A DNA stretch of 64,000 bases, taken from a virus. Below the pieces are notes generated by a model. That model was not told the DNA's origin and ran no database searches. It was given only the letters and a program-made list of their open reading frames with translations. Positions 1 through 63,675 of this stretch are shown here, piece after piece. The stretch lies in IMG/VR virus record IMGVR_UViG_3300042731_008397, positions 1-64,000 of that record; one strand, 5' to 3'. The translations under genes and the position numbers were made by a program. How positions within the stretch are numbered: position 1 is the first letter of the stretch; every line of letters starts with the position of its first letter.

Positions 1-769
1 CATGTAATTTTGCCAATCGTTTCCTGGCTTTGTCCCGGTTGCGACTGCCTTTCTGCTTTCGAGAGAGTTGTTGTTGTAACCGTTTCAATTTTTTCAACGA
101 CCTTTTGAGCGTTTTAGGGTGTTCAATCGTTTCACCGGATGATAGTGTAGCAAAAACTTTAATACCCATGTCTAGTCCAACAGTTGTTTCAAGACAAATC
201 GGCAATTTCTCCGGGATTTTTTGCTCAGTCTCTACTAAAATTGACACAAAATATTTCCCAGAGGGGGTCTGCCGCAAGGTGACGGTTTTCATTTTACCAA
301 CAAAGGTACGTGTATTCCTTCGCATTTTTAGACGAATATAACCGATCTTAGGGAAATAAATATTTTTATGTTCAAAGTTCACTTTGACCCCTTGCGGGAA
401 TTGACAAGACTGATGATAATTTTTCCGGGATTTGAAATGTGGAAATCCACCTTGTTTCTTAAAAAACCTTGTAAAGGCATTATCTAAGTTCCGCAATGAC
501 ATTTGTAACGCCTGAGAATAGACATCTTTCAGCCAGGAGTATTCTCGCTTGAGACCGGGCAAGCGTTTAATCAGGTCGTGACACGATACCGATTTTCCGG
601 TTTCTTCGTAGACCTTGACCTTTTCGGCCAGACCATTATTATAGACAAACCTGCAACAACCAAACAATTGAGAAATGGCATCGCGTTGTCCTTTTGTTGG
701 GAAAATTCGATATTTGAAAGCTTTTTGTAACACATTTAATAGATAAATACAAGTTTCTATTTTTGTCAA
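1..769 (-). CDS. tnpB: TnpB, IS200/IS605/IS607-type RNA-guided nuclease (3' end beyond window)
   Basis: The reading frame is open from a TTG at 769 to the left edge (about 256 residues) and is cut by the window. A purine-rich AGGAGA lies 6 bases before the TTG. The protein shows the OrfB N-terminal pattern (FKYRIFPTKGQRDAISQLFG), a KSRKNYHQSC segment and the RuvC-I motif TVGLDMGIKVFA with its catalytic Asp. RuvC-II, the zinc ribbon and RuvC-III would lie outside. TnpB uses an omega-RNA from its own transposon end to cut DNA. No tnpA is visible beside it. The frame looks intact as far as it can be read. Confidence 0.85.
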   Translation of the reverse strand, partial: MTKIETCIYLLNVLQKAFKYRIFPTKGQRDAISQLFGCCRFVYNNGLAEKVKVYEETGKSVSCHDLIKRLPGLKREYSWLKDVYSQALQMSLRNLDNAFTRFFKKQGGFPHFKSRKNYHQSCQFPQGVKVNFEHKNIYFPKIGYIRLKMRRNTRTFVGKMKTVTLRQTPSGKYFVSILVETEQKIPEKLPICLETTVGLDMGIKVFATLSSGETIEHPKTLKRSLKKLKRLQQQLSRKQKGSRNRDKARKRLAKLH

Positions 770-911
770 GGTTTTTCTCCTAATGCAAGAAAAAACTTTA
801 CTGGGAAACCGAATCTCTCTTCAAACTCTCCATAAAGTCTCTGATATTGCCTTATAATCGGGGCAACGAAGTTTTTATAAAAGAATTTGTGTAATTTTTA
901 TAGAAAATGAC

Positions 912-15466: not shown

Positions 15467-16000
15467 ATGAATTTAATCGGGACAAAATTCATTTATGACG
15501 GGATAGTTTACGAAGTTCACCGTAAATGGGATCAAACAGGAGAACAAATAACAGTTTTTTGGGGAGCTTCGCCCGTCAATAAACAAATCTTACATGGAAA
15601 GAAGGAAGTTTTCACATCAGAAGAAATCTTAAAGGCAGAAACCCCGGTACAATTCGGGTTTCAGGCAGAAGAGGAGCTTTTACAGCCGCATACGGTCATT
15701 ATGACCAGCGTGGATTATGGATCGGAAAAATTTGAATATGACACATTAATTGAGGCAACAATGGGGCTCCATCGCCTGATGAAAAACGCTTCGATCCGGA
15801 CAGAACAGGAAAACGAGTGTACCCGTTGGTTTACCTTAAAACGGACGGATCGGATGCAAGAAGAGGACATTTCTGATGGTGAGGAACTTGAATGGAGACC
15901 CCACATACTGGACTATGATAGAGAGGAACGCCCGGTATCAGAATTAGATACGGGCACGGCTGTCAACTATGGGGATAAGAAGTACCCGGAAAGTCTATAA
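15467..16000 (+). CDS. Unknown 177-residue protein
   Basis: ATG after AAAGGAGATTATAACGT. Beta-rich N-terminus (MNLIGTKFIYDGIVYEVHRK), acidic C-terminus. Its last eight codons (from GDKKYPESL) overlap the start of the tracrRNA-like element, so that RNA may be processed from the 3' end of this mRNA. Confidence 0.6.
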   Translation: MNLIGTKFIYDGIVYEVHRKWDQTGEQITVFWGASPVNKQILHGKKEVFTSEEILKAETPVQFGFQAEEELLQPHTVIMTSVDYGSEKFEYDTLIEATMGLHRLMKNASIRTEQENECTRWFTLKRTDRMQEEDISDGEELEWRPHILDYDREERPVSELDTGTAVNYGDKKYPESL

Positions 16001-16140
16001 GCTGACCGGCTATGTGGCGTATTTCACGTCCAGTGTGGGAGGGTTTTCCCTTCCTCCGAATGCTTTCAGAGATTGCCAAATAAAGAACCTTTGAAAGGGA
16101 TTGAAAGAAGCTTCCCCTATCACAAGATGAGGAAATGCCG
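15980..16140 (+). ncRNA. Predicted natural single-guide RNA (tracr-repeat fusion), copy A
   Basis: From AAGTACCCGGAAAG it follows the tracrRNA beside the CRISPR array almost base for base through GCTTTCAGAGATTGCC. Copy A then continues with AACCTTTGAAAGGGATTG and AAAG, a 20/22 match to the 3' part of the CRISPR repeat. CTTTCAGAGATT (about 16065) can pair with AACCTTTGAAAG in 11 of 12 positions across an 11-base loop. The guide would start at 16108 (AAGCTTCCCCTATCACAAGA) and runs into the ribosome site of the next gene. No own promoter of the tracr type is visible. Confidence 0.65.
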
Positions 16141-16691
16141 TGAAAAAGAACACATGGGACACGTTAGAATTTTATCGTAACCAGTTTCTTGAAATTGCTG
16201 GAAACGCCCTTGAATGTAGTGTCAAAAACCGAAATCGTTGGCGACAAACAGGACGGCAATTATTCAGAGAACTTTTCCGGGGATGTTATCGTCCTGGTTT
16301 CTGCCGCCATCAGGGATTTTGGGTATATGACTTGCTCTGTCAACCGGCATTGCTTTTTCTCTTTATCAAACCACATAGAGATGATCCAGTCTGGAAACAA
16401 GAGAATGCCGGGACATTCTGGCGGTATAAATGGTTTCTTGGAGTCGGATTTACAAAACCGACTGCCCGGTCTATGGCGTTACTTCACGGGGCAATTGAGA
16501 ACTTTGAAGGACGTCCTGGCGGAACAATTCTTCCGTTCCATGTTCAGTTAGCAAAAAAAGCTTGTCAACAGTTAAATCGTGAAAATCCTTTTATCTGTTC
16601 TTCATCTTCACTTCATACGGCTGCCGAAGAATGGTTGAAGATCGTGGGGTTTGGAGATTCAGAAGAAGATCAGGAGGAACAAAAGCAATGA
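16140..16691 (+). CDS. Unknown 183-residue protein
   Basis: GTG start after GATGAGGAAATGCC; this ribosome site lies in the putative guide of copy A. Contains aromatic, basic segments (GFWVYDLLCQPALLFLF; FWRYKWFLGVGF). Unknown. Overlaps the phosphoesterase start by four bases. Confidence 0.55.
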   Translation: MKKNTWDTLEFYRNQFLEIAGNALECSVKNRNRWRQTGRQLFRELFRGCYRPGFCRHQGFWVYDLLCQPALLFLFIKPHRDDPVWKQENAGTFWRYKWFLGVGFTKPTARSMALLHGAIENFEGRPGGTILPFHVQLAKKACQQLNRENPFICSSSSLHTAAEEWLKIVGFGDSEEDQEEQKQ

Positions 16692-17557
16692 AAATAATTC
16701 ATTTGTCGGATTTACATATCGGGCAAGGATGGAACTTGCTAAAATGTGAGTGGCTGGTACAGGGCTTGATTAAGATGTATGCAGGACTTGATCATGGTCT
16801 TGAAAACGGGAAGATTCCTGAAGATCAGGAATTTAAGATGCTCCCAATTATCATCATTACCGGGGATATTGTGGAAAGCGGCACTCAAAATCAATACCAG
16901 AGACTCCGTGAACTACTCCGTAATCTCCGAAATGTGGGCTTTGTTGTGTATGTCTGCCCAGGTAATCATGATTACGGGTTTAAAGGTAACTGGGCAATAC
17001 GAATCGCCTTAGAACGATTTGGTTTTTATGCTATGAATAGCACTTCCTGTCCTGACTTCCCCGTTGTTTATACAATAGTAGACCCAGGAGATCCGGATAA
17101 CGGCGTAGTCTTTATGTCAGTTGACTCAATGGCGGGTGAATTAGGCGGATTTGACGTGCTTTTTGCTCAAGGAGAGATAGGAGAGCAACAACGGGCAGAA
17201 ATCGCCGCATATTTAGAAGAGTTTGACCGTCCGAACCTTTATACGGTACTTTTCCTTCACCATCATCCATTTTATTACAACTTCTTTTTGAAGTTGAAGG
17301 ATGATCGGGCGTTTAAAGACCTTATTGCAGGAAAAGTAGACATCCTTCTATTCGGTCATAGACATGTGGATAAGAGATTGACTCGGAAAGAAATGAAATA
17401 TGACATTCCACTTATCCATGCGGCGGGCAGTACTGTTGATCTCCGGTTCGATACAAAAGGGAAAGCGTTCTTTGAATTTGCAGAAATAGACACCTGTGCC
17501 CTGGATGAACGATATGACGGGGAACTTATCAAAATGGTTCAACTTTATCCGGTTTAA
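16688..17557 (+). CDS. Calcineurin-like metallophosphoesterase
   Basis: 289 residues from the ATG after CAGGAGGAACAAAAGCA. All metal motifs are present: HLSDLHIG (Asp8, His10), ITGDIVESG, CPGNHDYG, LFLHHHPFYYN and ILLFGHRHVD. The family includes nucleases, phosphodiesterases and SbcD-like proteins; the substrate cannot be told. Length fits a single catalytic domain. No SbcC-type partner is adjacent. Confidence 0.85.
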   Translation: MKIIHLSDLHIGQGWNLLKCEWLVQGLIKMYAGLDHGLENGKIPEDQEFKMLPIIIITGDIVESGTQNQYQRLRELLRNLRNVGFVVYVCPGNHDYGFKGNWAIRIALERFGFYAMNSTSCPDFPVVYTIVDPGDPDNGVVFMSVDSMAGELGGFDVLFAQGEIGEQQRAEIAAYLEEFDRPNLYTVLFLHHHPFYYNFFLKLKDDRAFKDLIAGKVDILLFGHRHVDKRLTRKEMKYDIPLIHAAGSTVDLRFDTKGKAFFEFAEIDTCALDERYDGELIKMVQLYPV

Positions 17558-24639: not shown

Positions 24640-26475
24640 ATGGAATTAGCAGCAAGAACCATTAAAATTGCCTTAACAAATCTGTCGAAACAAGACCGGG
24701 AACATTTAACACTACTCTGTATCCATGCCGCAAGAATCTATAATGCGGCATTATGGTGTTGTCGGCAGCATTATATTAACCCGTCAATAATCCCTGACTG
24801 CCCTGATTGCCTGGTATGCCCATGTAAAGAGCAGTTTGAAACACTCCGATATTCATTGTCAAAAAATAAGATCGCACAACTGGCGGTTCCTGAAGAAATA
24901 CGGGCTAAATTGCGTCCAATTACCAAGCGCAAGGTATTCCGTTCAGAGTTTGAAGAACACCTCAAAGAGTGTTTATCACGGTCTGAAATGACCGTGTATG
25001 GAGAGAAAATCTTTGAATCTTGCCAATATTACGATAGGTTTCTGACAACCTATACGTTAGATTCAAAAGTGCTTCGACACCGGGAGTCTACACGGGTTCA
25101 CTTTGAAATATCTAGCAAAACCGCCCATTATATGGTAGATCAAGCTGTTAAAGATATACGGAATTATGATAAAAGTATCTGGAAATATTTGCAGAAGCAC
25201 CACCTTTCTTTCTTACAGCTTCGGGCAGAGCAAAAAAAGAAGAAGTATCGTGATGCTCCACGAATTCCAGGATATAAAAAAGACCAGCATTATTTAGGCG
25301 AAAACCATAGAAGTGATCAAGCTCCACCATTCGGACGAATTATCGCCGAAATAGGGAATGGGTTCGTTAAAGTTGATGACCGAACATTACGCCTAAGCCT
25401 TTCAAAAACGCTTAAAGATAAAGGCTTTACACCAATTTGTATCCCGATCCCTGAGTGGCTTCAATTTAATGATATTCGGAAACTTCAAATTACTCCGAAA
25501 TTTCGGAGTGAAGAGTTTTCGGTATCATTGACATACCAAGCATCTGTTCCGACAACTACAACGCCTGACAGCATAAGGATAATGGGAATTGATCTTGGGG
25601 TTAATAATCTTGCGGCCTGTGTGGACATGGAGACTCCATTCGCGTTTTTATTCAAAGGATCTTCTGTCAAATCAATCAATTGGTTTTGGAATAAAGAATG
25701 TGCCCGATTACGGGAATGTATGGCAGATCAAGATCCTCGTTCAAAATATAGTGTAACTGAAGAGAGTATCCAACTTTTACAAACCGTTCTTCCTGATGAC
25801 CTATTATTACGGTATAAACAACTTTGTGGACAGTCTTTTGCCACAGCGCAAAAACTCATTTTAGCATGTCATTTAACAGGAGATGAACAGAAGCAATGGC
25901 AACAATTGGTTGTCCCGTTTTCGACTCAATCTCACAAATTTCCACAGTCACGGCAGCTTTACCGAATCACCCGTCGCCGGAATGCCAAAATTGAATATAT
26001 CATGCAACAGGTTGCCAGATATATTGTAGATTACTGCGTTAAGCATCACATCAATACGGTTGTTGTTGGGGTGAACGTCGGATGGAAACAAGGTGTAAAT
26101 ATAGGGAAACGGAATACTCAAAATTTTGTGCAAATCCCGTTTTTACAGTTACGGAATTATCTAAAATATGCCTGCGAGCCGGAAGGAATAGCTTATATTG
26201 AACATGAAGAAAGTTTCACATCTTTATGTTCTTTTTTGGATTATATGGAGATTCCTACGTATGATGGAAGCAACGAACTCCATACATTTTCCAAATCATT
26301 AAAAAAACGCAGGAAACGAGGACTATACCAGACAAATAACGGGACTCATGTTAACGCCGATTGTAACGGAGCCGCTAATATCGCCGTAAAAAGCGGAAAT
26401 TGGCAAGGGGATCGTAGCCAATTCCTTGCTTGTTTACGCTCACCTAAAATAATAAAATTATCAGAAATTTCTTGA
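24640..26475 (+). CDS. TnpB-derived Cas12-like (type V) effector
   Basis: 611 residues, ATG after AAAGGAGATAGCTTT. RuvC-I IRIMGIDLGVNNLAA (Asp318). At the usual RuvC-II place it reads VVVGVNVGWKQGVNIGKR (about 475-491) with Gly where Glu is normal; a Glu is instead in IEHEESFTS (523/524), as known for TnpBs with a rearranged catalytic site. RuvC-III is NADCNGAANI (Asp574). No C-terminal CxxC zinc ribbon is seen, but CPDCLVCPC (54-62) in the N-terminal part may bind metal. It is larger than TnpB (about 400) and lies next to a tracrRNA and a CRISPR array. Expected to be an RNA-guided DNA nuclease. Subtype not assignable by eye; no cas1 or cas2 nearby. Confidence 0.8.
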   Translation: MELAARTIKIALTNLSKQDREHLTLLCIHAARIYNAALWCCRQHYINPSIIPDCPDCLVCPCKEQFETLRYSLSKNKIAQLAVPEEIRAKLRPITKRKVFRSEFEEHLKECLSRSEMTVYGEKIFESCQYYDRFLTTYTLDSKVLRHRESTRVHFEISSKTAHYMVDQAVKDIRNYDKSIWKYLQKHHLSFLQLRAEQKKKKYRDAPRIPGYKKDQHYLGENHRSDQAPPFGRIIAEIGNGFVKVDDRTLRLSLSKTLKDKGFTPICIPIPEWLQFNDIRKLQITPKFRSEEFSVSLTYQASVPTTTTPDSIRIMGIDLGVNNLAACVDMETPFAFLFKGSSVKSINWFWNKECARLRECMADQDPRSKYSVTEESIQLLQTVLPDDLLLRYKQLCGQSFATAQKLILACHLTGDEQKQWQQLVVPFSTQSHKFPQSRQLYRITRRRNAKIEYIMQQVARYIVDYCVKHHINTVVVGVNVGWKQGVNIGKRNTQNFVQIPFLQLRNYLKYACEPEGIAYIEHEESFTSLCSFLDYMEIPTYDGSNELHTFSKSLKKRRKRGLYQTNNGTHVNADCNGAANIAVKSGNWQGDRSQFLACLRSPKIIKLSEIS

Positions 26476-26501
26476 CAACGGATATTTCATACAAGTAATA
26501 T
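26472..26501 (+). promoter_or_regulatory. Promoter of the tracrRNA
   Basis: TTGACA, 18 bases, TAATAT. It overlaps the end of the effector gene. The same promoter (TTGACAAC, GATATT, TAATATGGGAATTACAAG) precedes the fused copy C at 35003. Confidence 0.8.
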
Positions 26502-26507
26502 GGGAAT

Positions 26508-26604
26508 TACAAGTACCCGGAAAGTATGATACTGACCGGCTATGTGGCGTATTTCACGTCCAGTGTGGGAGGGTTTTCCCTTCCTCCGAACGCTTTCAGA
26601 GATT
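26508..26604 (+). ncRNA. Predicted tracrRNA
   Basis: Starts near GGGAATTACAAGTACCCGG. Stem 1 AGTAT/ATACT, then GGCGTATTTCACG with TCCA pairing, then GGGAGGG-TTTT-CCCTTCC, and the anti-repeat CTTTCAGAGATT (26593-26604), a perfect complement of AATCTCTGAAAG in the CRISPR repeat. After it, CCGAGCA and TGCTCGG (26606-26678) can close a further hairpin. Copies A and C share the body with paired changes in stems. Confidence 0.75.
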
Positions 26605-26744
26605 GCCGAGCAGGGGATGCTGACAAAGCAACATTCTGTATCTGCCTACAAACATGGCTAAGACAAAATGATTGCTCGGAGACTATATATAAGGCATTTG
26701 TACCCTTAAAAAGACAAAATTTATAGTTCTTTGACAGCATTTTT

Positions 26745-26813
26745 AGAGATTTGTGCCAGGTGCTCGGAAACAGGAAATTGACTTACGTGATACCGGGCAG
26801 ATAGAAACAAGCA
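26745..26813 (+). promoter_or_regulatory. CRISPR leader, possible weak promoter
   Basis: TTGACT (26778) and TAGAAA 18 bases on could drive the array; -10 match is weak. The stretch holds no gene. Confidence 0.35.
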
Positions 26814-27433
26814 GTAGAAAAGCTAATAAATCTCTGAAAGGGATTGAAAGCTTCTCATACCCGGCAAATTCTGCTTGTAATGCTGTAGAAAAGCTAATAA
26901 ATCTCTGAAAGGGATTGAAAGGACCGGGATTCGTTAACTGTCCAGGAAGCCCGGTTGAGTAGAAAAGCTAATAAATCTCTGAAAGGGATTGAAAGTCCCA
27001 TACCGTTGACGGGAATAGCCCGTCATTGAGTAGAAAAGCTAATAAATCTCTGAAAGGGATTGAAAGTACCAGAATATCCCCTGTTTGCCCGTCAACAATC
27101 GCGTAGAAAAGCTAATAAATCTCTGAAAGGGATTGAAAGGGGGCATAAAAAAGGCGCCCTCGCCAGGACGCCCAAGTAGAAAAGCTAATAAATCTCTGAA
27201 AGGGATTGAAAGCCGCTGATAGATAGCAGATTCCAGATTATAGATTTGGTAGAAAAGCTAATAAATCTCTGAAAGGGATTGAAAGGTTGAAGTAATTGGT
27301 TCATAATTTTCTCCTTAACGTGCGTAGAAAAGCTAATAAATCTCTGAAAGGGATTGAAAGATATTGGTCTGTTAGGCGTTCCCGGTTTATTTCCATGTAG
27401 AAAAGCTAATAAATCTCTGAAAGGGATTGAAAG
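26814..27433 (+). CRISPR. CRISPR array, 9 repeats of 37 bp, 8 spacers
   Basis: Nine identical repeats start at 26814, 26885, 26959, 27030, 27103, 27176, 27249, 27324 and 27397, beginning GTAGAAAAGCTAATAAATCT and ending GGGATTGAAAG. Spacers are 34-38 bases. Transcribed rightward the crRNA has a 5' handle, as in type V. Spacer 5 reversed is a GC hairpin with a T-run (a terminator), spacer 7 reversed holds AAGGAGAAAATTATG (ribosome site and start) and spacer 8 reversed begins ATGGAAATAAACCGG. No match inside this window was seen. Confidence 0.97.
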
Positions 27434-27453
27434 ACTTTGGATACTTCTTTAAA

Positions 27454-28056
27454 ATGATTCTTAATAGAAACCAAGAAATATGTTCTCTCCCGACACGGAC
27501 ACATTTGAGCTTCCAAAATTACATAATCATTGACTATACAACACAAGACACGATTGAATTATCCAAAGATCAATATAATCCGTTTAGACTAGGGAAACTT
27601 CCTATTACTTTAGATACTTCTTTCAATGTGCTTTATGTTGATCTTTTTGCTCTGAACTTCGGACAGAAAGAACCTTTGATGAAACGGGAAAACCGGACAT
27701 GGGTTTCTATTATTTACAAGTGTTCACGGGCGGTGAGAGATGAAATTTTATTATTACCCATTGAGAAAATCCATGCCGAATTTCGGAAAGAACAGTGTCC
27801 TTACCGGACTTGTCAATACTGGCAAAAAACTCCCGGAGTTAACAGAGAGATTTATTGCCTTTTAGCCCGGTATCGGCTTTTGTCTTCATTTGGAGAGGAT
27901 AAAGGCTACACGTTAGAACAAATAAGCCGGATTTTTTCAGTTTGCCGTGAATGGGTAAGACGTATCGAGGACAGCGGGTTACACCGTTTACGCAAAAGAA
28001 AGAAATCTCTGAAAGAGACTGAAAGTAAAGCGAAAGAAAGGAATAAAACATTATGA
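27454..28056 (+). CDS. Sigma-70 region-4-like regulator
   Basis: About 200 residues from ATG 27454; the frame also opens at a TTG in the last CRISPR repeat, which is less likely. The C-terminal part YTLEQISRIFSVCREWVRRI followed by EDSGLHRLRKRKKS matches sigma region 4.2 (TLEEIGxxxGVTRERVRQIE and LxxLR). Regions 2 and 3 are not evident. It might be a phage sigma-like or anti-terminator factor. It is next to the array, and a CRISPR-repeat-like sequence lies in its last codons. The next gene starts at its stop (ATGA). Confidence 0.6.
   Translation: MILNRNQEICSLPTRTHLSFQNYIIIDYTTQDTIELSKDQYNPFRLGKLPITLDTSFNVLYVDLFALNFGQKEPLMKRENRTWVSIIYKCSRAVRDEILLLPIEKIHAEFRKEQCPYRTCQYWQKTPGVNREIYCLLARYRLLSSFGEDKGYTLEQISRIFSVCREWVRRIEDSGLHRLRKRKKSLKETESKAKERNKTL
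28003..28025 (+). repeat. Degenerate CRISPR repeat 3' half inside a gene
   Basis: AAATCTCTGAAAGAGACTGA then AAG: 21 of 23 bases match the 3' end of the CRISPR repeat. The following bases (TAAAGCGAAAGAAAGGAATA) include the next ribosome site. It encodes KKSLKETESK. Confidence 0.6.
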
Positions 28057-34815: not shown

Positions 34816-35002
34816 AATTTTCTCCTGAGTTAGCCCATTTTAAGGGCATAGACAGAAGAGGATAAATCTTTGCTAAACTTTTGTCAAGAAAACTTTAGCA
34901 ATTCTGTAAAGGTATTTTTGAAAGATCGCCCCAAATTCTCCTATTGACGGGCAATATCAGGTGAAGAAAAAATGGAAGTTTTCGTGCAAGATAAAAAATT
35001 TC

Positions 35003-35032
35003 TTGACAACAGATATTACTTGTATGTAATAT
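35003..35032 (+). promoter_or_regulatory. Promoter of fused guide RNA copy C
   Basis: TTGACA, 18 bases, TAATAT; downstream ATGGGAATTACAAGTACCCG is identical to that of the tracrRNA promoter at 26472. Confidence 0.8.
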
Positions 35033-35038
35033 GGGAAT

Positions 35039-35165
35039 TACAAGTACCCGGAAAGCCTATAGGCTGACCGGCTATGTGGCGTATTTCACGTCCAGCGTGG
35101 GAAGTGTGACTCTTCCTCCAAACTCTTTTTAGAGATTGAAAGCCTACTTTTTCCCGATGATTACG
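35039..35165 (+). ncRNA. Predicted natural single-guide RNA, copy C
   Basis: Body AAGTACCCGGAAAG, AGCCTATAGGCT, GTGGCGTATTTCACGTCCAG as in the tracrRNA. The stem changes to GGGAAG/CTTCC with its partner, and the first stem is AGCC/GGCT where the tracrRNA has AGTAT/ATACT, so pairing is kept. The anti-repeat and repeat are reduced to CTCT-TTTT-AGAG followed directly by ATTGAAAG (ends 35142). The guide begins at 35143 (CCTACTTTTTCCCGATGATT) and runs antisense into the 3' end of the lipoprotein gene. Confidence 0.65.
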
Positions 35166-35965
35166 TTTGAAATAACCAGACCTTTTGGGGCATAACGCCG
35201 TGGGTTAGCTCCCAGTTGGATTTGATGTTTTGTCGGAGCAAACGGCCCATTATACTGCCCTGTCAAGACATGCTCTCCGTCTCTGAACACTAAAACGGTT
35301 GAATTCCCCCACTCGATCCGGAAATGATATTCTTTTTCGGGATCCCAATCTCTGGTGACGTAACCGCTTTCTTCCCACTCTCCCCGGCTTTTGATCTTTG
35401 CTTTAAAGGCGTTTGAAGCGTCTGGACGGTCTTTGATAAAGCCATATTTCCGAATTTCAAAGATATACGGAGCATTGGCGTAATCATAGCCGTCTTCGCC
35501 CGACCACATTGACACCAGAACACTCTTAAACTCTGTTCCCCCGTATAGTTCGTCCTGTTGAAAGCCTTTTGCCGTAAATTCGATATACCCGGAAGCCGTT
35601 GTCGGAATCTCCCAGTGTGCATACCACCAGCGGGATTCTGTAGTATAAACCCCGTCTTTAACTTTTCCATACCGTGTTTCTGCCTGATCAAATCCGATAA
35701 AAAACACATTATCGGGGAGTGGCACCGGCGTAGCGGTCGGTGTGGGAGTCGGAATCTCAGGAGTTTCGGTTGGCTCTGGCGTTACAGTCGGTAACGGGGT
35801 CTCTGTCGGCGTCGGCGTTTCTTCTGGTCCAGGTGTCGGTGTCGTTTCCGGATCAGGTAATGTGTCAATAAAATCTCCGATGTCATCTAATAGCTCCGCG
35901 CAGGCTACCAAAATGCCCATTACAAGGACACAGGTAAGGATAAACAACGTTTTTGACGTTTTCAT
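35144..35965 (-). CDS. Lipoprotein with Pro-Thr-rich linker
   Basis: 273 residues from ATG after GAGGAAGAGTC. Signal TLFILTCVLVMGILVAC with lipobox LVAC, then an acidic stretch, a long Pro-Thr-Glu linker (TPTPGPEETPTPTETPLPTV) at about 45-85, and a beta-rich C-terminal domain with WYAHWEIPTTASGYIEF and FRIEWGNSTVLVFRDGEHVL, which looks like a concanavalin or glucanase-like sandwich. Such PT linkers are common in Chloroflexota. Possibly a host-surface lipoprotein. Its stop lies in the guide of copy C. Confidence 0.75.
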   Translation of the reverse strand: MKTSKTLFILTCVLVMGILVACAELLDDIGDFIDTLPDPETTPTPGPEETPTPTETPLPTVTPEPTETPEIPTPTPTATPVPLPDNVFFIGFDQAETRYGKVKDGVYTTESRWWYAHWEIPTTASGYIEFTAKGFQQDELYGGTEFKSVLVSMWSGEDGYDYANAPYIFEIRKYGFIKDRPDASNAFKAKIKSRGEWEESGYVTRDWDPEKEYHFRIEWGNSTVLVFRDGEHVLTGQYNGPFAPTKHQIQLGANPRRYAPKGLVISNVIIGKK

Positions 35966-36087
35966 GACTCTTCCTCTTGTTTTTCGGGCTTTTCCGGGAA
36001 AATTCGTTGTTTTATGCGTTTTAGAAGTCCCCGGCAAAACTGGACTATCCCAGTTGCCCAAATAACGGTGTTTTGGCGTATATTCAT
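35962..36087 (-). CDS. Small basic 41-residue protein
   Basis: MNIRQNTVIWATGIVQFCRG with a short hydrophobic core then KRIKQRIFPEKPEKQEEES. Starts right after the next small gene's TAA and overlaps the lipoprotein ATG. Confidence 0.45.
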   Translation of the reverse strand: MNIRQNTVIWATGIVQFCRGLLKRIKQRIFPEKPEKQEEES

Positions 36088-39959: not shown

Positions 39960-40627
39960 ACTTCCCGTTGAGCGAATTCAAAAAACTTCATATCTTATAA
40001 GATGTCCCGTATCAGGGGATTTCTAGCTTTTTTTTCGAGGCGAATTCAAAAAACTTCATATCCTATAGACTCGTTTTTTACCCGATATTTCGTTATTTTC
40101 TTTAGCAAGTTTAGCAATTTACGCAAGTTTCTTGTAAGCTTTTATAAAGAAAGAGCTTACAAATCCTCATATTTTATCATATTTTATCATATTCTTGTTT
40201 TCGGGAACTTTAGCAAGTTTAGCAATTTACGCAAGTTTCTTGTAAGTGATTATACAATGAAGACTTCTGGCGGCTCATACTTTATCATACTTTATCATAT
40301 TTTGGCTAAACCAGAACACATGTGTCTTAGTTGCGGCCTATAAACCAGAACACATGTGTCTTATTACCAGAACACATGTGTCTCGATTACCAGAACACAT
40401 GTGTCTTATTACCAGAACACATGTGTCTTATTACCAGAACACATGTGTCTTAGTTGCGGCCTTCCTTTTGTGTCTGGGAATACCCGTCTCTCTAAGCAAG
40501 ATATGTGTTCTCTCGCGTGCGCACGCGCGTATTTTTTCTAAAAAAAGAAAAAATAATTAATTAAAATTATTTTAAAAATATTATATTAAGAGAAAATTTG
40601 CCCGCCTTTCTGAGAAAGTCGGCGGGC
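39960..40627. other. Putative replication origin: direct repeats, iterons, AT-rich tract
   Basis: No gene from 39533 to 40896. Two copies of GCGAATTCAAAAAACTTCAT (near 39973 and 40041), two of GCAAGTTTAGCAATTTACGC (near 40106 and 40211), TCATATTTTA tandem repeats, then six CCAGAACACATGTGTCT iterons (40311, 40345, 40367, 40390, 40412, 40434; ACACATGTGT is a palindrome), GCGTGCGCACGCGCG, an AT-only stretch and GCCCGCC/GGCGGGC hairpin with a T-run (40600-40627). A replication gene follows. Confidence 0.75.
40311..40450 (+). repeat. Six iterons of CCAGAACACATGTGTCT
   Basis: Core spacing 22-23 bases for the last five, 34 for the first; each contains a perfect 10-bp palindrome. Typical of initiator binding sites. 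Confidence 0.85.
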
Positions 40628-42034: not shown

Positions 42035-42076
42035 AGTTACTTAAAATCTATAAAAATATTCTAAGTTCTTTGTCAT
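42035..42076 (+). repeat. 42-bp inverted repeat, left copy
   Basis: AGTTACTTAAAATCTATAAA to CTTTGTCAT; its perfect inverse is 45248-45289. It bounds the IS607 island. Confidence 0.9.
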
Positions 42077-42080
42077 ACCT

Positions 42081-42230
42081 GACTTCATAGCCGGTTATCG
42101 GCGTGAAGACGCGCCAATTCGATACAGGTACGGGCACTCCGCGACGACGTTCCCAGTTGCGGACCCTGTCACCCCAACACCGACGTCAGGGAACCGTACT
42201 CCCCACAGGATGGGGAGCCTTACAGGACTT
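42081..42230 (-). mobile_element. IS right-end (omega-RNA-like) element, copy P1
   Basis: On the minus strand: CTCCCCATCCTGTGGGGAG hairpin, GTACGGTTCCCTGAC, then CGTCTTCACGCCGATAACCG and GCTATGAAGTC. Same element at 57702 and 63535. Fold and position at gene ends fit a TnpB transposon right end, whose transcript would be the guide RNA; no tnpB is attached here. Confidence 0.5.
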
Positions 42231-42445
42231 TTATAGATAGCGGCGCAAGAAAACCCATTCAATCCCTGAACATACCGAAAGGCGGTCAATGGTGGGATCG
42301 CCCGAAATTCTAAGGGAGGGGGGGTGTCCCCCAGTTCTCCCTTCTCGATCACCCATTTCCAGCCGCCAAACGGTCAGCGGTGCTTTATTAAATAATTGAA
42401 ATTAATTAGGTAGCCCACTAAATACTTAACCAGAAAGGAGACAAG

Positions 42446-43400: not shown

Positions 43401-43639
43401 AAAAAATGAAATTTTGAACAGTTCGTGGTTGGTTTAAGAATCGGAACGGTTCGGAGAAAGATCAAGAACCGTTCGCAGAAACGGAACTGATGAGAACCGC
43501 TGATTTTCTAAGCGGTTCGTGGGGTAGTTCGGGGCGCAGGAAGGTATCGTATATGAATATTAGTTCTATATAAAAAAAAACATAGGATTTTATATAAAAA
43601 TAACTTGACTATATGATAGCACTATTCCATAGTGTCATC

Positions 43640-44233
43640 ATGAAATTATCACAGTGGGCAAAACGGCAAGGCGTCAGTTATCAGACGGCCTGGAACCTGT
43701 TCAAAAAAGGGCAGCTTCCAGAAGCGTATCAATTAGAATCCGGGACAATTATTGTCCCGGAACCACAGCAACAAGCCAAACCAGAGTATGTCGTCTGCTA
43801 TGCGCGAGTGTCTTCCTCTCAAAACCGGGATAATCTTGACCGACAGGCTGAACGGCTGACCTCCTACTGTCTGGCGAAGGGCTATATTGTGCAAGAAGTC
43901 ATTAAAGAATGCGCCTCTGGCCTGAATGACACACGCCCTAAATTCTGCAAGATGTTGTCGAATCCAAAGATGACACGAATTGTTGTTGAGCATACTGACC
44001 GTTTCGCCCGATTCGGTATCAATCCGATCCGGATTCTGTTGGAACGACATGGATGTACGCTTGAAGTGATCAACCCGGCAGCAAACGACAAAGAAGATCT
44101 GATGCAAGATTTTATCAGCTTAGTGACATCCTTCTGTGCCAGAATATACGGAAAACGCCGCTGTAAACGGAAAACTGAACAATTGATCAAAGACCTTCAA
44201 GATGATACGAAAAACAACGCTCAATCTCAATAA
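43640..44233 (+). CDS. tnpA: IS607-family serine recombinase TnpA
   Basis: 197 residues from ATG 43640; a nine-codon upstream in-frame extension is less likely. N-terminal MerR-like HTH (MKLSQWAKRQGVSYQTAWNL), then the serine recombinase domain: VVCYARVSSSQNRDNLDRQA with the catalytic Ser. VEHTDRFARFGINPIRILLE and the C-terminal basic helix fit IS607 (about 200 residues). Catalyses site-specific DNA recombination via a 5'-phosphoserine link. Overlaps tnpB by 32 bases. Confidence 0.9.
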   Translation: MKLSQWAKRQGVSYQTAWNLFKKGQLPEAYQLESGTIIVPEPQQQAKPEYVVCYARVSSSQNRDNLDRQAERLTSYCLAKGYIVQEVIKECASGLNDTRPKFCKMLSNPKMTRIVVEHTDRFARFGINPIRILLERHGCTLEVINPAANDKEDLMQDFISLVTSFCARIYGKRRCKRKTEQLIKDLQDDTKNNAQSQ

Positions 44234-45251
44234 CGCGAATATCGGCAAACAACAGACCTTGCTCGACATCAGCACGGAGTACAACCGTGTGGTCAATCTC
44301 TGCATTGACGACCTGTGGGAGCAAGAACAGTTTTCCGGCTCCTTTGTCAAAGACACCGCCTGGATTGATACCTATCTCTCCGCTCGAATGAAGCAGTGCG
44401 CCGCCAAACAAGCCCTTGCTATTGTCAAATCACAACGGAAGAAGGAGCAGAAGACAAAACCCGTCTTCAATAAGCGTGTGATGGAACTGGACAGCCGCTT
44501 TGTTGAGCTTGAGCAGGATGTCAATTCATTTGACTGCTGGATTACCCTGTCCTCCATCGGCAAGAAGCTGAAACTTCAGATTCCGACCCAGAAACATGCT
44601 CACTTCAATCGCTTCCTTGAACAGGGCTGGACACTCAAGAAGAGCCTCCGTATCCGAGTGAACGCAAAGGGCTTTTGGGCAGATGTGTATTTCCAGAAAC
44701 AGGCTCCGGCTCCCAAGAAAACCGGGACAGTGAAAGGTTTCGACATCGGGTATAAAAAGCTGCTGGTGAATTCTGACGGTCAACAATTCGGCAAGGACTT
44801 TGAACAGTATGCCGAGAAAATCGCCCGAAAGCAGCAAGGCAGCAAAGGCTTCCTTCGTGCCTTGACGGAGCGCAATCAGTTTGTCAACCAGACGGTCAAT
44901 GCGCTTCCACTTGAGAATGTAAAGACGGTGGTAGTTGAAAATCTGAAGTCTGTCAAACACAAATCAAAAGGCAAAATTCGGAAATCCTTTAATAACAAGC
45001 TCCAACGCTGGACGTACCCGTTGGTGTTGGAACGCCTGACGAATCGCTGTGAATGCGAGGGCATCTCAATGACGTTCATTGATCCCGCATACACGTCTCA
45101 AACTTGTTCCGACTGCGGAATCAGGGACAAGCTCTCTCGGAAAGGAGAACGGTTTCAGTGCCGAACCTGCGGCGTCGAACTTGATGCTGACTGGAACGGG
45201 GCGAAAAACATTCTTCAGAAGGGAGTACGGCAGCCTATAGTCGCCGCATGA
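44202..45251 (+). CDS. tnpB: IS607 TnpB
   Basis: 349 residues. TVKGFDIGYKKLLVNS (RuvC-I Asp), TVVVENLKSVKH (Glu), YTSQTCSDCGIRDKLSRKGE and FQCRTCGVELDADWNGAKNI (zinc ribbon Cys four and RuvC-III Asp). All catalytic residues present, so probably active. Starts MIRKTTLNLNNANIGKQQTL within the tnpA end. The 42-bp right repeat overlaps its stop. Confidence 0.9.
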   Translation: MIRKTTLNLNNANIGKQQTLLDISTEYNRVVNLCIDDLWEQEQFSGSFVKDTAWIDTYLSARMKQCAAKQALAIVKSQRKKEQKTKPVFNKRVMELDSRFVELEQDVNSFDCWITLSSIGKKLKLQIPTQKHAHFNRFLEQGWTLKKSLRIRVNAKGFWADVYFQKQAPAPKKTGTVKGFDIGYKKLLVNSDGQQFGKDFEQYAEKIARKQQGSKGFLRALTERNQFVNQTVNALPLENVKTVVVENLKSVKHKSKGKIRKSFNNKLQRWTYPLVLERLTNRCECEGISMTFIDPAYTSQTCSDCGIRDKLSRKGERFQCRTCGVELDADWNGAKNILQKGVRQPIVAA

Positions 45252-45289
45252 CAAAGAACTTAGAATATTTTTATAGATTTTAAGTAACT
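45248..45289 (-). repeat. 42-bp inverted repeat, right copy
   Basis: Perfect inverse of 42035-42076. It starts within the last codons of tnpB and touches the truncated tnpB on the other strand. Confidence 0.9.
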
Positions 45290-46196
45290 ATTTCCGAGGC
45301 ACTACTAACTGAACGATAACCCCTGCCAATATAGCTTTATAACAAATGAACTGTTGCAATTGATAAAACGACCAGCCATGATGACGGCTTCTCTGAGATT
45401 TCCGTACCCTGATCCTCTCGCGGATACCTTTCAAGTGTTCAAGAACAATTCCCTGAGAGGTGTGTTTGGCTTTCTCAACGAGTGTTTTGCTTATGCAGTG
45501 GTTTACATCACGGCGAAATCGTTGTTCTTTCTTAGCAATTTTCTTGAGTTTCCGTTTTGCCGACTTTGTGCCGGTACTTTGAAGAGTTTTTCTCAATTGA
45601 CTATACTTTTCGCGGATTTGATCAACTTGTTTGCCGGAGAACTGCTCTCCTTCGGAGGTAGTTGCTATATTAATAATTCCCAGGTCAACCCCAAGAAACT
45701 TTTGAGGGGAGGTCGTGGGAGGTTCAGGCAAGTCAAGAGTCGCCAACAAAAAGAAGACTCCCTTGACAAGGATAAGATCGGCTTGTCCTTTGATACGGTC
45801 AACACGGGCTTTTTGATAGTCACCGAGAACCATAGCAACCTTTTGTCGTTTTTCAATTGTCCAGATGCTTACATGGGACAGTCCTTTATACGAGAGAATC
45901 CGTTGATCATAGACTATTGCTCCGTGTTCTTTGAATTGATGCAATGTCTTTTTATCAGCCTTATAACTTTCAGCAACCTTAGAAATAGCTCTGATAACCA
46001 TTTGAGCAGACAGACCATATTTCGACTTTATGTCATGATACACCTGTTTCTGAATGTTGAATTTGCCGAAGCATTTTTGATTAAATGCAAACTGCGAAAT
46101 TTCATTGCAAGCATTATTGAACTGTTCCATCGTTTTCAGGAGTGCTTGACGCTGTGTTTCTGTTGGCATCAGTTTGATTTTCAAGGTTGTTTTCAT
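45288..46196 (-). pseudogene. tnpB: TnpB truncated by the IS607 island
   Basis: 302 residues. LPEPPTTSPQKFLGVDLGII (RuvC-I Asp) and GIVLEHLKGIRERIRVRKSQ (Glu) are present. The frame ends VIVQLVVPRK at the 42-bp repeat, where TnpBs normally continue to NTSRTCSxCG and the final Asp. No continuation is seen past 42035. So the IS607 island inserted in, or recombined with, this gene. Confidence 0.85.
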
Positions 46197-57494: not shown

Positions 57495-57696
57495 TTTCGA
57501 TAATCTCCTTAAGCCGGGCATAAAGGAGCTTTGTTTCATCTTCCGTAAGCTGGATATATGTGGCCTGCCCGTTATCATGAAATTCTATAGCTTTAATCTT
57601 GACAATTTGGGCACTTTTCCCCGGTATTTCTTCAAAAATCACCGCCCGTCCTGTAGCAAAAAAGATTGGTCTATATAGATAGTTTCCTTCTGTCAT
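57487..57696 (-). CDS. Unknown 69-residue protein
   Basis: MTEGNYLYRPIFFATGRAVI; longer frame crosses the IS element. Beta-rich then LTEDETKLLYARLKEIIENE. Lies between queD and queE. Unknown. Confidence 0.5.
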   Translation of the reverse strand: MTEGNYLYRPIFFATGRAVIFEEIPGKSAQIVKIKAIEFHDNGQATYIQLTEDETKLLYARLKEIIENE

Positions 57697-57701
57697 AAAA
57701 A

Positions 57702-57849
57702 TCCTGTAAGGCTCCCCATCTTGTGGGGAGTACGGTTCCCTGACCTGGGTACAGGGGTGTCCGTACCTGCAAGTGGGAACGTCCTCGCAGGGTGTCCGTA
57801 CCTGCATCCGTGTGGCGCGTCTTCACGCCGATAACCGGCTATGAAGTCC
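57702..57849 (+). mobile_element. IS right-end (omega-RNA-like) element, copy P2
   Basis: TAAGGCTCCCCATCTTGTGG, GTACGGTTCCCTGACCTG, AACGTCCTCGCAGGGTGTC, then CTTCACGCCGATAACCGGCT. Same as 42081 (inverted) and 63535. Its last bases give queD its stop codon. Confidence 0.55.
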
Positions 57850-58243
57850 GGTAGCAGACATAACTTGAAGAAGTTTCCCAAAACCGGATTTCGATAATAG
57901 GTAACCCTGCTTCCTTCCCGTAGTTAAAAGCCAATTTGGCTAAATATTCTGCTGTGGGGTTTTCTTCGGCACAAGTAACAGCTTGTCCGTGCTCTTGTAA
58001 TATCGGAGCAAGTGGGTCGTCCTGACGCAGGATGGTTTTATGATCAAAATTCGTCTCAACCCATCTTGCCATAGTCCTTTTAATGTCTCTGAAATCAACG
58101 GAAAGGCTTAAGGAGTCAAGATTTTTTGTTTCAACAATAATTTCGAGCCTTCCGTTGTGTCCATGTAGTTTGCAACATTTTCCGTTATAACCCATCAGCC
58201 TGTGGGCATAGCAGAAGTCAATGAACTTTACAGCTTGGTACAT
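57839..58243 (-). CDS. queD: QueD, 6-carboxy-tetrahydropterin synthase
   Basis: 134 residues. AHRLMGYNGKCCKLHGHNGR has the His triad and Cys of QueD; VDFRDIKRTMARWVETNFDH and ENPTAEYLAKLAF follow. Makes CPH4 from dihydroneopterin triphosphate. The final residues (CYRTS) are coded by the IS element P2, so the C-terminus is slightly altered. Confidence 0.88.
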   Translation of the reverse strand: MYQAVKFIDFCYAHRLMGYNGKCCKLHGHNGRLEIIVETKNLDSLSLSVDFRDIKRTMARWVETNFDHKTILRQDDPLAPILQEHGQAVTCAEENPTAEYLAKLAFNYGKEAGLPIIEIRFWETSSSYVCYRTS

Positions 58244-63244: not shown

Positions 63245-63675
63245 TATAAGCTAACTCCACATTAATATTAGCATCCTTGACGTACTCCCAGGGCTGAAGC
63301 ACCTGGGATTCTGGGGTCAAGCAGCGGTTGCCTCACTCAATGGATGTCTAACACCGCCTTACCCAATGCGTTGACGCCCCAACGCTTTTAAAAAATCAAG
63401 AAATTTTTGTCGAAATTCATCCCTTGGCTAAAGCCATAGAAGGGGCTTTCTTTCGACAGGTCCTGTAACTGATGGCAATGTAATCCGTTAAATTCCTTAT
63501 ATTCGTTATCTGTCGGTTGATGTATCACAATAAGCCCTGTAAGGCTCCCCATCCTGTGGGGAGTACGGTTCCCTGACCTGGATACAAGGGTGACAGGGCC
63601 TGCAAGTGGGACCGTCCTCGCAGGGTGTCAATACCTGCATCCATACGGCACGTCCTTATCCCGATAAGCGGATTA
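63245..63675 (+). mobile_element. IS200/IS605-derived element with right end (P3)
   Basis: 63290-63480 has CCCAGGGCTGAAGCACCTGG and AAGAAATTTTTG with CCTTGGCTAAAGCCATAGAA, a transposon-end fold; 63535-63675 repeats element P2 (GTAAGGCTCCCCATCCTGTG and onward to CCGATAAGCGG). No transposase: MITE- or PATE-like. It stops at the 3' end of the next gene. Confidence 0.5.

What the first reader, a model, noticed from the sequence alone, without database searches (positions are those of the whole stretch)
15980..16140. Natural single-guide RNA far from the array (copy A)
The tracr body is copied about 10 kb upstream and fused, through an 11-base loop, to a repeat-like end that pairs in 11 of 12 positions and ends ATTGAAAG like the repeat. 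This would be a ready-made sgRNA. Its guide (from 16108) covers the ribosome site of the next gene.
Basis: partly seen in the sequence, partly recalled or inferred. Interest (0 to 1): 0.88.

Follow-up and report, generated by a model that had tools for sequence, protein, structure and literature searches.

The report
Phage-encoded natural single-guide RNAs for Cas12
A bacterial virus that carries its own small CRISPR (Cas12-type) system also carries, elsewhere in its genome, three ready-made single-guide RNAs in which the two normally separate guide parts are fused; two of them sit directly in front of operons for DNA-repair nuclease subunits, so the virus may use its CRISPR protein for targets, or for gene control, outside the CRISPR array.

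Summary
At 15980-16107 the tracrRNA body (26511-26607) recurs at 95% identity. It runs through an 11-nt loop (16075-16085) into a repeat-like half that pairs 11 of 12 with the anti-repeat and ends GGGATTGAAAG, as the array repeat does. The window is part of a 132,054-bp phage record that holds four scaffold copies: the tracr beside the array (B) and three fused ones, A, C (35042-35142) and D (104510-104622, minus strand). A, C and D differ in sequence but keep the helices, with two-sided changes, and each ends UUGAAAG. They therefore look like selected single-guide RNAs, not stray duplications.

The effector (611 aa) is TnpB-derived and type V-U-like, with an intact alternative-Glu RuvC triad; no close relative was found in IMG/VR or GTDB. 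C keeps the tracr promoter. A and D have none and sit inside operons, upstream of SbcD-like and SbcC-like genes, where the 'guide' overlaps the next gene's ribosome site or start codon.

No guide matches the phage, INPHARED or PLSDB above chance, and guide A's first 19 nt match nothing in IMG/VR. Whether these RNAs guide Cas12 in trans or regulate the downstream mRNA in cis is unresolved. No expression data exist.

The parts
15980..16107 (+). Copy A: fused single-guide scaffold (tracr body + 11-nt loop + repeat half)
   Evidence: 95% identity to tracr B; fold -36.6 kcal/mol, z -1.84; coordinates
16063..16074 (+). anti-repeat CTTTCAGAGATT of copy A
   Evidence: pairs 11/12 with 16086-16097
16075..16085 (+). 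11-nt loop joining anti-repeat and repeat half
16086..16107 (+). repeat half AACCTTTGAAAG + GGATTGAAAG end of copy A
   Evidence: 3 mismatches in 23 to the array repeat over 16085-16107
16108..16130 (+). putative guide A (AAGCTTCCCCTATCACAAGATGA), runs into the SD of the next gene
   Evidence: sequence; no target above chance found
16140..16691 (+). ORF of 183 aa downstream of guide A (GTG start), followed by an SbcD-like phosphoesterase
   Evidence: no Pfam match; no relative in INPHARED
16631..17557 (+). SbcD-like calcineurin phosphoesterase
   Evidence: PF00149 E=4.5e-14
24640..26475 (+). effector P0001, 611 aa, TnpB-derived Cas12
   Evidence: PF01385, PF07282; NF040570; nearest PDB folds are Cas12f; D318/E524/D574 invariant in the 51-sequence alignment
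26472..26501 (+). promoter of tracrRNA B (TTGACA-18-TAATAT)
26511..26607 (+). tracrRNA body, copy B
   Evidence: anti-repeat 26593-26604
26814..27433 (+). CRISPR array: nine 37-nt repeats GTAGAAAAGCTAATAAATCTCTGAAAGGGATTGAAAG, eight spacers of 34-38 nt
27454..28056 (+). sigma-70 region-4 protein between the last repeat and a degenerate repeat
   Evidence: PF04545 E=1.4e-7 on ORF 27427-28056; ATG 27454 is the likely start (inference)
28003..28025 (+). site E: stand-alone repeat end (2 mismatches in 23) inside the 3' end of the sigma gene, followed by the SD/ATG of an HU-like gene
35003..35032 (+). promoter of copy C, duplicated with the scaffold
   Evidence: TTGACA-18-TAATAT; region 34991-35055 is 88% identical to 26460-26524
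35042..35142 (+). Copy C: fused scaffold with a 4-bp CUCU/AGAG stem, ends ATTGAAAG; free-standing, antisense between minus-strand genes
   Evidence: 86% identity to A; fold
35143..35165 (+). putative guide C (CCTACTTTTTCCCGATGATTACG), antisense to the 3' end of ORF 35144-36061
   Evidence: no match above chance in searched collections

Best explanation
Copy A is a genuine natural single-guide RNA for the phage's own tracr-dependent, TnpB-derived Cas12 effector, one of three in this genome (A, C, D). Shown by sequence: tracr and repeat halves are fused, helices and the terminal UUGAAAG are conserved in all three, effector and array are in the same genome, and C keeps the tracr promoter. Inferred: A and D are cut out of operon mRNA by the effector and/or RNase III; the effector loads them without needing a separate crRNA; the ~20 nt after UUGAAAG (from 16108 in A) then guide it to DNA in trans. 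The target is not in the sequences searched and may be another phage's allele of the same region or a host locus. Because the guide overlaps the ribosome site or start codon of the next gene, loading would also lower expression of that gene in cis.
For: Four scaffold copies in the record, three fused. All three fused copies keep the same architecture with different loops and stems. A, C and D break 3 of 45 helix pairs against B; random placement of the same number of changes breaks about 11.7 (no run in 20,000 as low), or about 9.9 if only variable columns may change (P about 4e-4). Pairs 15-22, 16-21 and 64-69 have two-sided changes; 96% of cells pair, against 41-63% for slid registers. Between the variable tips, about 30 positions of the core (TGACCGGCTATGTGGCG.ATTTCACGTCCAG) are invariant. 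The repeat half is absent from the tracr locus itself, so a copied tracr alone cannot give the fused 3' half. C carries a copy of the tracr promoter. The effector has an intact D318/E524/D574 triad and Cas12f-like fold matches.
Against: No RNA data. No target: best matches of guide starts in the phage are 8-12 nt runs, near chance; nothing in INPHARED or PLSDB below E=2; guide A's first 19 nt are absent from IMG/VR. A and D lack a recognisable promoter. No relatives exist to show that guides are conserved. Guides of A and D coincide with mRNA leader or start-codon sequence, which a pure trans guide would not need. With only four paralogous rows, the letter-shuffle control on covariation is modest (26/500).
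Confidence: 0.5

Rival explanations
1. sgRNA-shaped mRNA leader: A and D are cis-regulatory elements. The effector binds the sgRNA-like fold in the operon mRNA and blocks or removes the ribosome site of the next gene, so free effector level tunes the SbcD-like and SbcC-like operons. No DNA target is needed.
For: A and D have no promoter of their own and lie between co-directional genes. In D the Shine-Dalgarno AAGG is inside the repeat/anti-repeat helix (pairing probability 0.95-0.99) and the start codon is guide nt 1. Site E (stand-alone repeat end, 28003-28025) and the last array repeat also lie within ~30 nt of the next start codon. The phage has another dispersed structured element, F2, which often sits 5' of start codons. 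Guides have no known target.
Against: C has its own promoter and no same-strand gene downstream, so it cannot be a leader. In compact phage operons any intergenic insert lies near a start codon. The exact tracr+repeat architecture ending UUGAAAG is what loading a guide needs, not just binding.
Confidence: 0.3
2. Sponge or decoy: the fused RNAs occupy the effector without productive targeting and thereby limit its activity, as RNA anti-CRISPRs do, but against the phage's own effector.
For: Fused scaffolds without known targets; C has a good promoter match.
Against: A phage has little need to inhibit its own effector with three loci; the 3' ends are complete rather than truncated.
Confidence: 0.06
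3. Dispersed or decaying non-coding element: tracr-like copies spread by duplication, as other repeated intergenic RNAs of this phage did, and have no present function.
For: The phage carries two further dispersed structured families (F2, F3) and six further TnpB-like genes, so element spread is common here.
Against: Helices preserved through two-sided changes; a repeat-derived 3' half in register in three different fusions; invariant core; no broken copies.
Confidence: 0.08
4. RNA-guided homing: the scaffold was inserted so that the downstream flank is the guide, and the effector cuts alleles lacking the insert, like IS605 TnpB with its guide RNA.
For: TnpB ancestry of the effector; guides A, C and D equal their own downstream flank and overlap phage genes.
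Against: Left flanks of A, C and D share no common motif that could be a TAM; no empty-site relative found; no transposon ends seen.
Confidence: 0.06

Closest known systems
tracr-L of Streptococcus pyogenes type II-A (natural single guide RNA, PMC11417352)
   Same: A single RNA in which one transcript supplies both tracr and guide function; known to redirect Cas9 to a promoter with an 11-nt match
   Different: tracr-L is an isoform of the one tracr gene with its guide at the 5' end and represses cas genes; here three separate fused genes for a type V effector carry the guide 3', and no cas-promoter match was found
omega/reRNA of IS200/IS605 TnpB and TldR guide RNAs (PMC13418256)
   Same: Single RNA with the guide at its 3' end; effector is TnpB-derived; B lies directly 3' of the effector gene, where TnpB guide RNAs lie; an RNase III-split TldR guide is described there as an intermediate towards crRNA/tracrRNA
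   Different: Here split (tracr+array) and fused forms of one scaffold coexist in one genome, the fused ones far from the effector
Type V-U / Cas12f-like CRISPR-Cas (PMC12669027)
   Same: TnpB-derived single effector with array and tracr; about 50 independent such origins inferred
   Different: The effector belongs to the alternative-Glu TnpB group, no adaptation gene was recognised beside it, it is phage-borne, and it has extra solo guide RNAs
Delocalised crRNAs of CRISPR-associated transposons (PMC11656645)
   Same: Guide units located away from the array
   Different: Those are crRNAs using a tracr in trans; A, C and D carry their own tracr half (site E alone resembles a delocalised repeat)
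dCas12f-gRNA complexes (PDB 9n9c series) and Cas12 with sigma-factor partners
   Same: A sigma-70 region-4 gene follows the array immediately
   Different: This effector keeps its catalytic triad; the sigma partnership reported for dCas12f is from my own knowledge and was not tested

Membership tests
Natural single-guide RNA (tracr-L-like) | One RNA holds the tracr scaffold, a paired anti-repeat/repeat hairpin and a guide | tested here: met
Natural single-guide RNA (tracr-L-like) | Guide matches a DNA target, e.g. the cas promoter | tested here: not met
   no significant match in phage, INPHARED or PLSDB; guide A not in IMG/VR; host genomes not tested
Natural single-guide RNA (tracr-L-like) | RNA is made and bound by the effector | not testable with these tools
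   needs RNA-seq or RIP-seq
Type V (Cas12) CRISPR-Cas, V-U group | TnpB-derived RuvC effector next to a CRISPR array | tested here: met
Type V (Cas12) CRISPR-Cas, V-U group | tracrRNA with anti-repeat complementary to the repeat | tested here: met
   CTTTCAGAGATT (26593-26604) is the exact complement of AATCTCTGAAAG in the repeat
Cas12f (V-F) | Match to a Cas12f family profile over its cut-off | tested here: not met
   NF049972 32.9 bits against a 450 cut-off; PADLOC Cas12f models match weakly; structural neighbours only
TldR / nuclease-dead Cas12 transcription factor | RuvC catalytic residues lost | tested here: not met
   D318, E524 and D574 invariant with 50 relatives; the canonical RuvC-II Glu site is Asn, as in the alternative-Glu TnpBs aligned
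IS200/IS605 TnpB with its guide RNA | Scaffold at the 3' end of tnpB, single RNA, no CRISPR array | tested here: not met
   B lies 3' of the effector but is split, with an array about 200 nt downstream

The most novel reading that the evidence does not exclude
A phage uses its own Cas12 as an RNA-binding regulator. sgRNA-shaped leaders placed in front of operon genes (A before an SbcD-like operon, D before an SbcC-like operon) are bound by the effector, so one protein both interferes with DNA through the array and sets translation of a recombination nuclease, with a promoter-driven sgRNA (C) feeding or competing for the same pool.
Probability: 0.25. Interest if true: 0.87.

Novelty: new variant of a known kind. 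Interest (0 to 1): 0.64.

Why it matters
tracr-using CRISPR effectors are thought to descend from TnpB, which uses one RNA. A genome that keeps split (tracr + crRNA) and fused single-guide forms of the same scaffold beside one TnpB-derived effector makes the one-RNA/two-RNA transition testable in a single organism, shows which scaffold positions tolerate change (a natural mutational scan for sgRNA engineering), and suggests that phages run Cas12 on fixed, hard-wired guides in addition to an array.

Tried and rejected
Relatives of the effector by peptide scan in IMG/VR and GTDB: none. Scan with a family alignment: 77 viral TnpB loci, none with this scaffold; L022, L071 and L089 have unrelated CRISPR-like repeats near their TnpBs. 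Relatives by terminase: none close. Tracr core and repeat as DNA patterns: 0 in IMG/VR with long patterns; shorter patterns gave 8 viral and 44 GTDB hits, with no similarity beyond the pattern region. Guide or spacer targets: none above chance. A degenerate scan for the start of the gene after D gave one unrelated phage gene. The nuclease-dead effector idea was rejected on the conserved alternative Glu. TnpB guide-RNA ends of relatives do not resemble the scaffold. One search used a helix register off by one and is superseded.

Full report
Setting. The window is positions 1-64000 of a 132,054-bp IMG/VR phage record that may be a fragment. It holds a terminase, a ParB-like protein, methyltransferases and an SbcD-like phosphoesterase. 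The CRISPR locus is: effector 24640-26475, tracrRNA from about 26508 with a TTGACA-18-TAATAT promoter, array 26814-27433 (nine identical 37-nt repeats, spacers of 34-38 nt), then a sigma-70 region-4 protein and an HU-like protein. No Rfam family covers the tracr, copy A or the array at the curated threshold; the only match in the window is a tRNA.

Observation. Every statement of the finding checks out in the sequence (details in the observation check). Searching the whole record for the 131-nt element gives four places: A 15980-16110, B (the tracr) 26511-26607, C 35042-35138 and D 104528-104622 on the minus strand; a word-7 BLAST of the core gives the same four and only short chance matches otherwise. 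A, C and D are fused: A with a 12-position stem and an 11-nt loop, D with an 8-bp CUUUCAGA/UCUGAAGG stem and a 4-nt loop, C with a 4-bp CUCU/AGAG stem and a 4-nt loop. In all three an outer 3-bp C(A/G)A/UUG helix is predicted and the RNA ends (A)UUGAAAG before the putative guide, as the array repeat does.

More than chance. The similarity itself is beyond doubt (E 1e-22 to 1e-38). Are the copies kept as RNA? Against B, the three copies have 3, 7 and 6 changes in helix columns yet break only 1, 2 and 0 of 15 pairs; the same number of random changes would break about 11.7 in total (none of 20,000 trials reached 3), and about 9.9 if changes may fall only in variable columns (P about 0.0004). Three pairs show two-sided changes (15-22, 16-21, 64-69), and the structure pairs 96% of cells against 41-63% when slid. 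The letter-shuffle control is weaker (26 of 500), as expected with four rows, and the helices were read from folds of these same sequences. Single-sequence folding z-scores are modest (-1.55 to -2.81). The long core between the helix tips is invariant. I read this as selection for a protein-bound RNA scaffold.

The effector. P0001 matches OrfB_IS605 and Cas12f1-like_TNB and the RNA-guided TnpB subfamily above its cut-off. Its nearest relatives are IS605 TnpBs at 29-35% identity. The canonical RuvC-II Glu position is Asn in the motif VVGVN, but a Glu in the motif (E)ES(Y/F)TS (E524) is invariant in all 51 aligned proteins together with D318 and D574. This is comparable to the alternative Glu described for some TnpBs and Fanzors (PMC10711439), although here no zinc-finger cysteines follow it in P0001. 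By sequence the nuclease should be active. The AlphaFold2 model (pLDDT 74, weak between residues 51 and 173) finds Cas12f structures first. It is not a Cas12f by the curated model (32.9 bits against 450). I file it as a type V-U-like, TnpB-derived effector. The updated classification counts about 50 independent TnpB-to-type-V events and treats such candidates as V-U (PMC12669027).

Context of the copies. C is a duplication of the tracr locus with its promoter: 34991-35055 is 88% identical to 26460-26524, which includes the last codons of the effector gene. It lies antisense between minus-strand genes, so its guide is antisense to the end of ORF 35144-36061. A and D have no homology upstream of about 10 nt before the RNA start and no promoter call; they lie in operons, A between ORF 15467-16000 and ORF 16140 + SbcD-like gene, D between a 248-aa ORF and an 81-aa ORF + SbcC-like ATPase gene (the SbcC label is from my reading of its P-loop sequence, not a profile search). 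In D the only plausible Shine-Dalgarno of the 81-aa ORF is inside the repeat/anti-repeat helix, paired with probability 0.95-0.99, and its ATG is the first guide base. A stand-alone repeat end (site E, 2 mismatches in 23) lies in the 3' end of the sigma gene, about 28 nt before the next ATG.

Targets. No guide or spacer has a convincing match in the phage itself, in 50,697 phage records or 72,556 plasmids (best E about 2-3); guide A's first 19 nt do not occur in IMG/VR. Host genomes could not be tested because the host is unknown. One curiosity is that array guide sp9, which runs into the sigma gene, matches a later part of the same gene in 18 of 20 positions (27607).

How it works. Shown: scaffold identity, fusion, structure conservation, promoter for C, effector with an intact triad. 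Inferred: effector loading, because the scaffold is the effector's own tracr and the repeat half restores exactly the duplex that tracr+crRNA would form; processing of A and D out of mRNA; use of the following ~20 nt as a guide. Because A and D put the ribosome site or start codon in or next to the guide, loading must affect the mRNA in cis whatever happens in trans. I give about 0.5 to a trans-acting guide as the main role, 0.3 to cis control of the downstream operon as the main role, and the rest to decoy, homing or no function. C, with its own promoter and no downstream gene, is the best argument for a trans role; D, with its buried Shine-Dalgarno, is the best argument for a cis role.

Known relatives. 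The closest precedent for a natural single guide is tracr-L of Cas9, which represses the cas promoter (PMC11417352); geometry and location differ. TnpB and TldR guide RNAs are single RNAs with 3' guides, and an RNase III-split TldR guide has been proposed as an intermediate towards crRNA/tracrRNA (PMC13418256). This phage would be a complementary case, with both forms of one scaffold in one genome. I found no report in the held library of solo sgRNA genes for a tracr-using Cas12, but that library is partial.

Limits. One genome, no relatives, no expression data; four paralogous rows for the structure test; no host; the record may be incomplete.

Noticed in passing
G000 phage coordinates: 1210-1322(-), 5706-5826, 6075-6192, 11648-11769(-), 15327-15445, 24068-24186, 39574-39652, 43299-43423, 49112-49222, 101350-101466, 106393-106520(-), 111171-111297, 128333-128453(-): A dispersed ~115-nt intergenic element (F2...TTTCGTTTCTAAGGACTTGGAACGYCAACCCCTATACTCATAGGGG...GTGTGGCGTCTCTCAGAGCGCCAGAG) in 13 copies, about half of them directly 5' of a start codon; no Rfam match at the curated threshold.
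   Followed up: partly
G000: 42063-42234(-), 57695-57866, 63536-63671, 64670-64799, 100054-100177, 105411-105533, 107443-107562, 107827-107946(-): A second dispersed, G+C-rich ~120-170-nt element (F3; CCTGTAAGGCTCCCCATCYTGTGGGGAGTACGGTTCCCTGAC...GTGGGAACGTCCTCGC...) in 8 copies; no Rfam match up to E=5.
   Followed up: partly
G000: 2-820(-), 44202-45251(+), 45288-46196(-), 71511-72692(+), 92953-94119(+), 123709-124827(-): Six further TnpB-family genes besides the Cas12 effector, one beside an IS607-like recombinase (43613-44233): an unusually TnpB-rich phage.
   Followed up: partly
window 27427-28056: A sigma-70 region-4 gene lies between the last array repeat and a degenerate repeat (site E), as if it were a giant spacer; possible partner of the effector.
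   Followed up: no
window 26740-26753: A second anti-repeat-like stretch (TTTTTAGAGATTTG) in the array leader, resembling the TTTTTAGAGATT of copy C; could pair with the first repeat.
   Followed up: no
L071:9300-9640; L022:11100-11270 and 4118; L089:11140-11840: Viral TnpB loci with CRISPR-like repeat arrays near the TnpB gene; possible further TnpB-to-Cas12 transitions.
   Followed up: partly
window 26851-27396: Reverse complements of array spacers 7 and 8 read as starts of genes (AAGGAGAAAATTATGAACC...; ATGGAAATAAACCGG...), suggesting start-region targets; no match found.
   Followed up: partly
window 40310-40472: Tandem and near-tandem copies of ACCAGAACACATGTGTCTTATT (22-nt unit).
   Followed up: no
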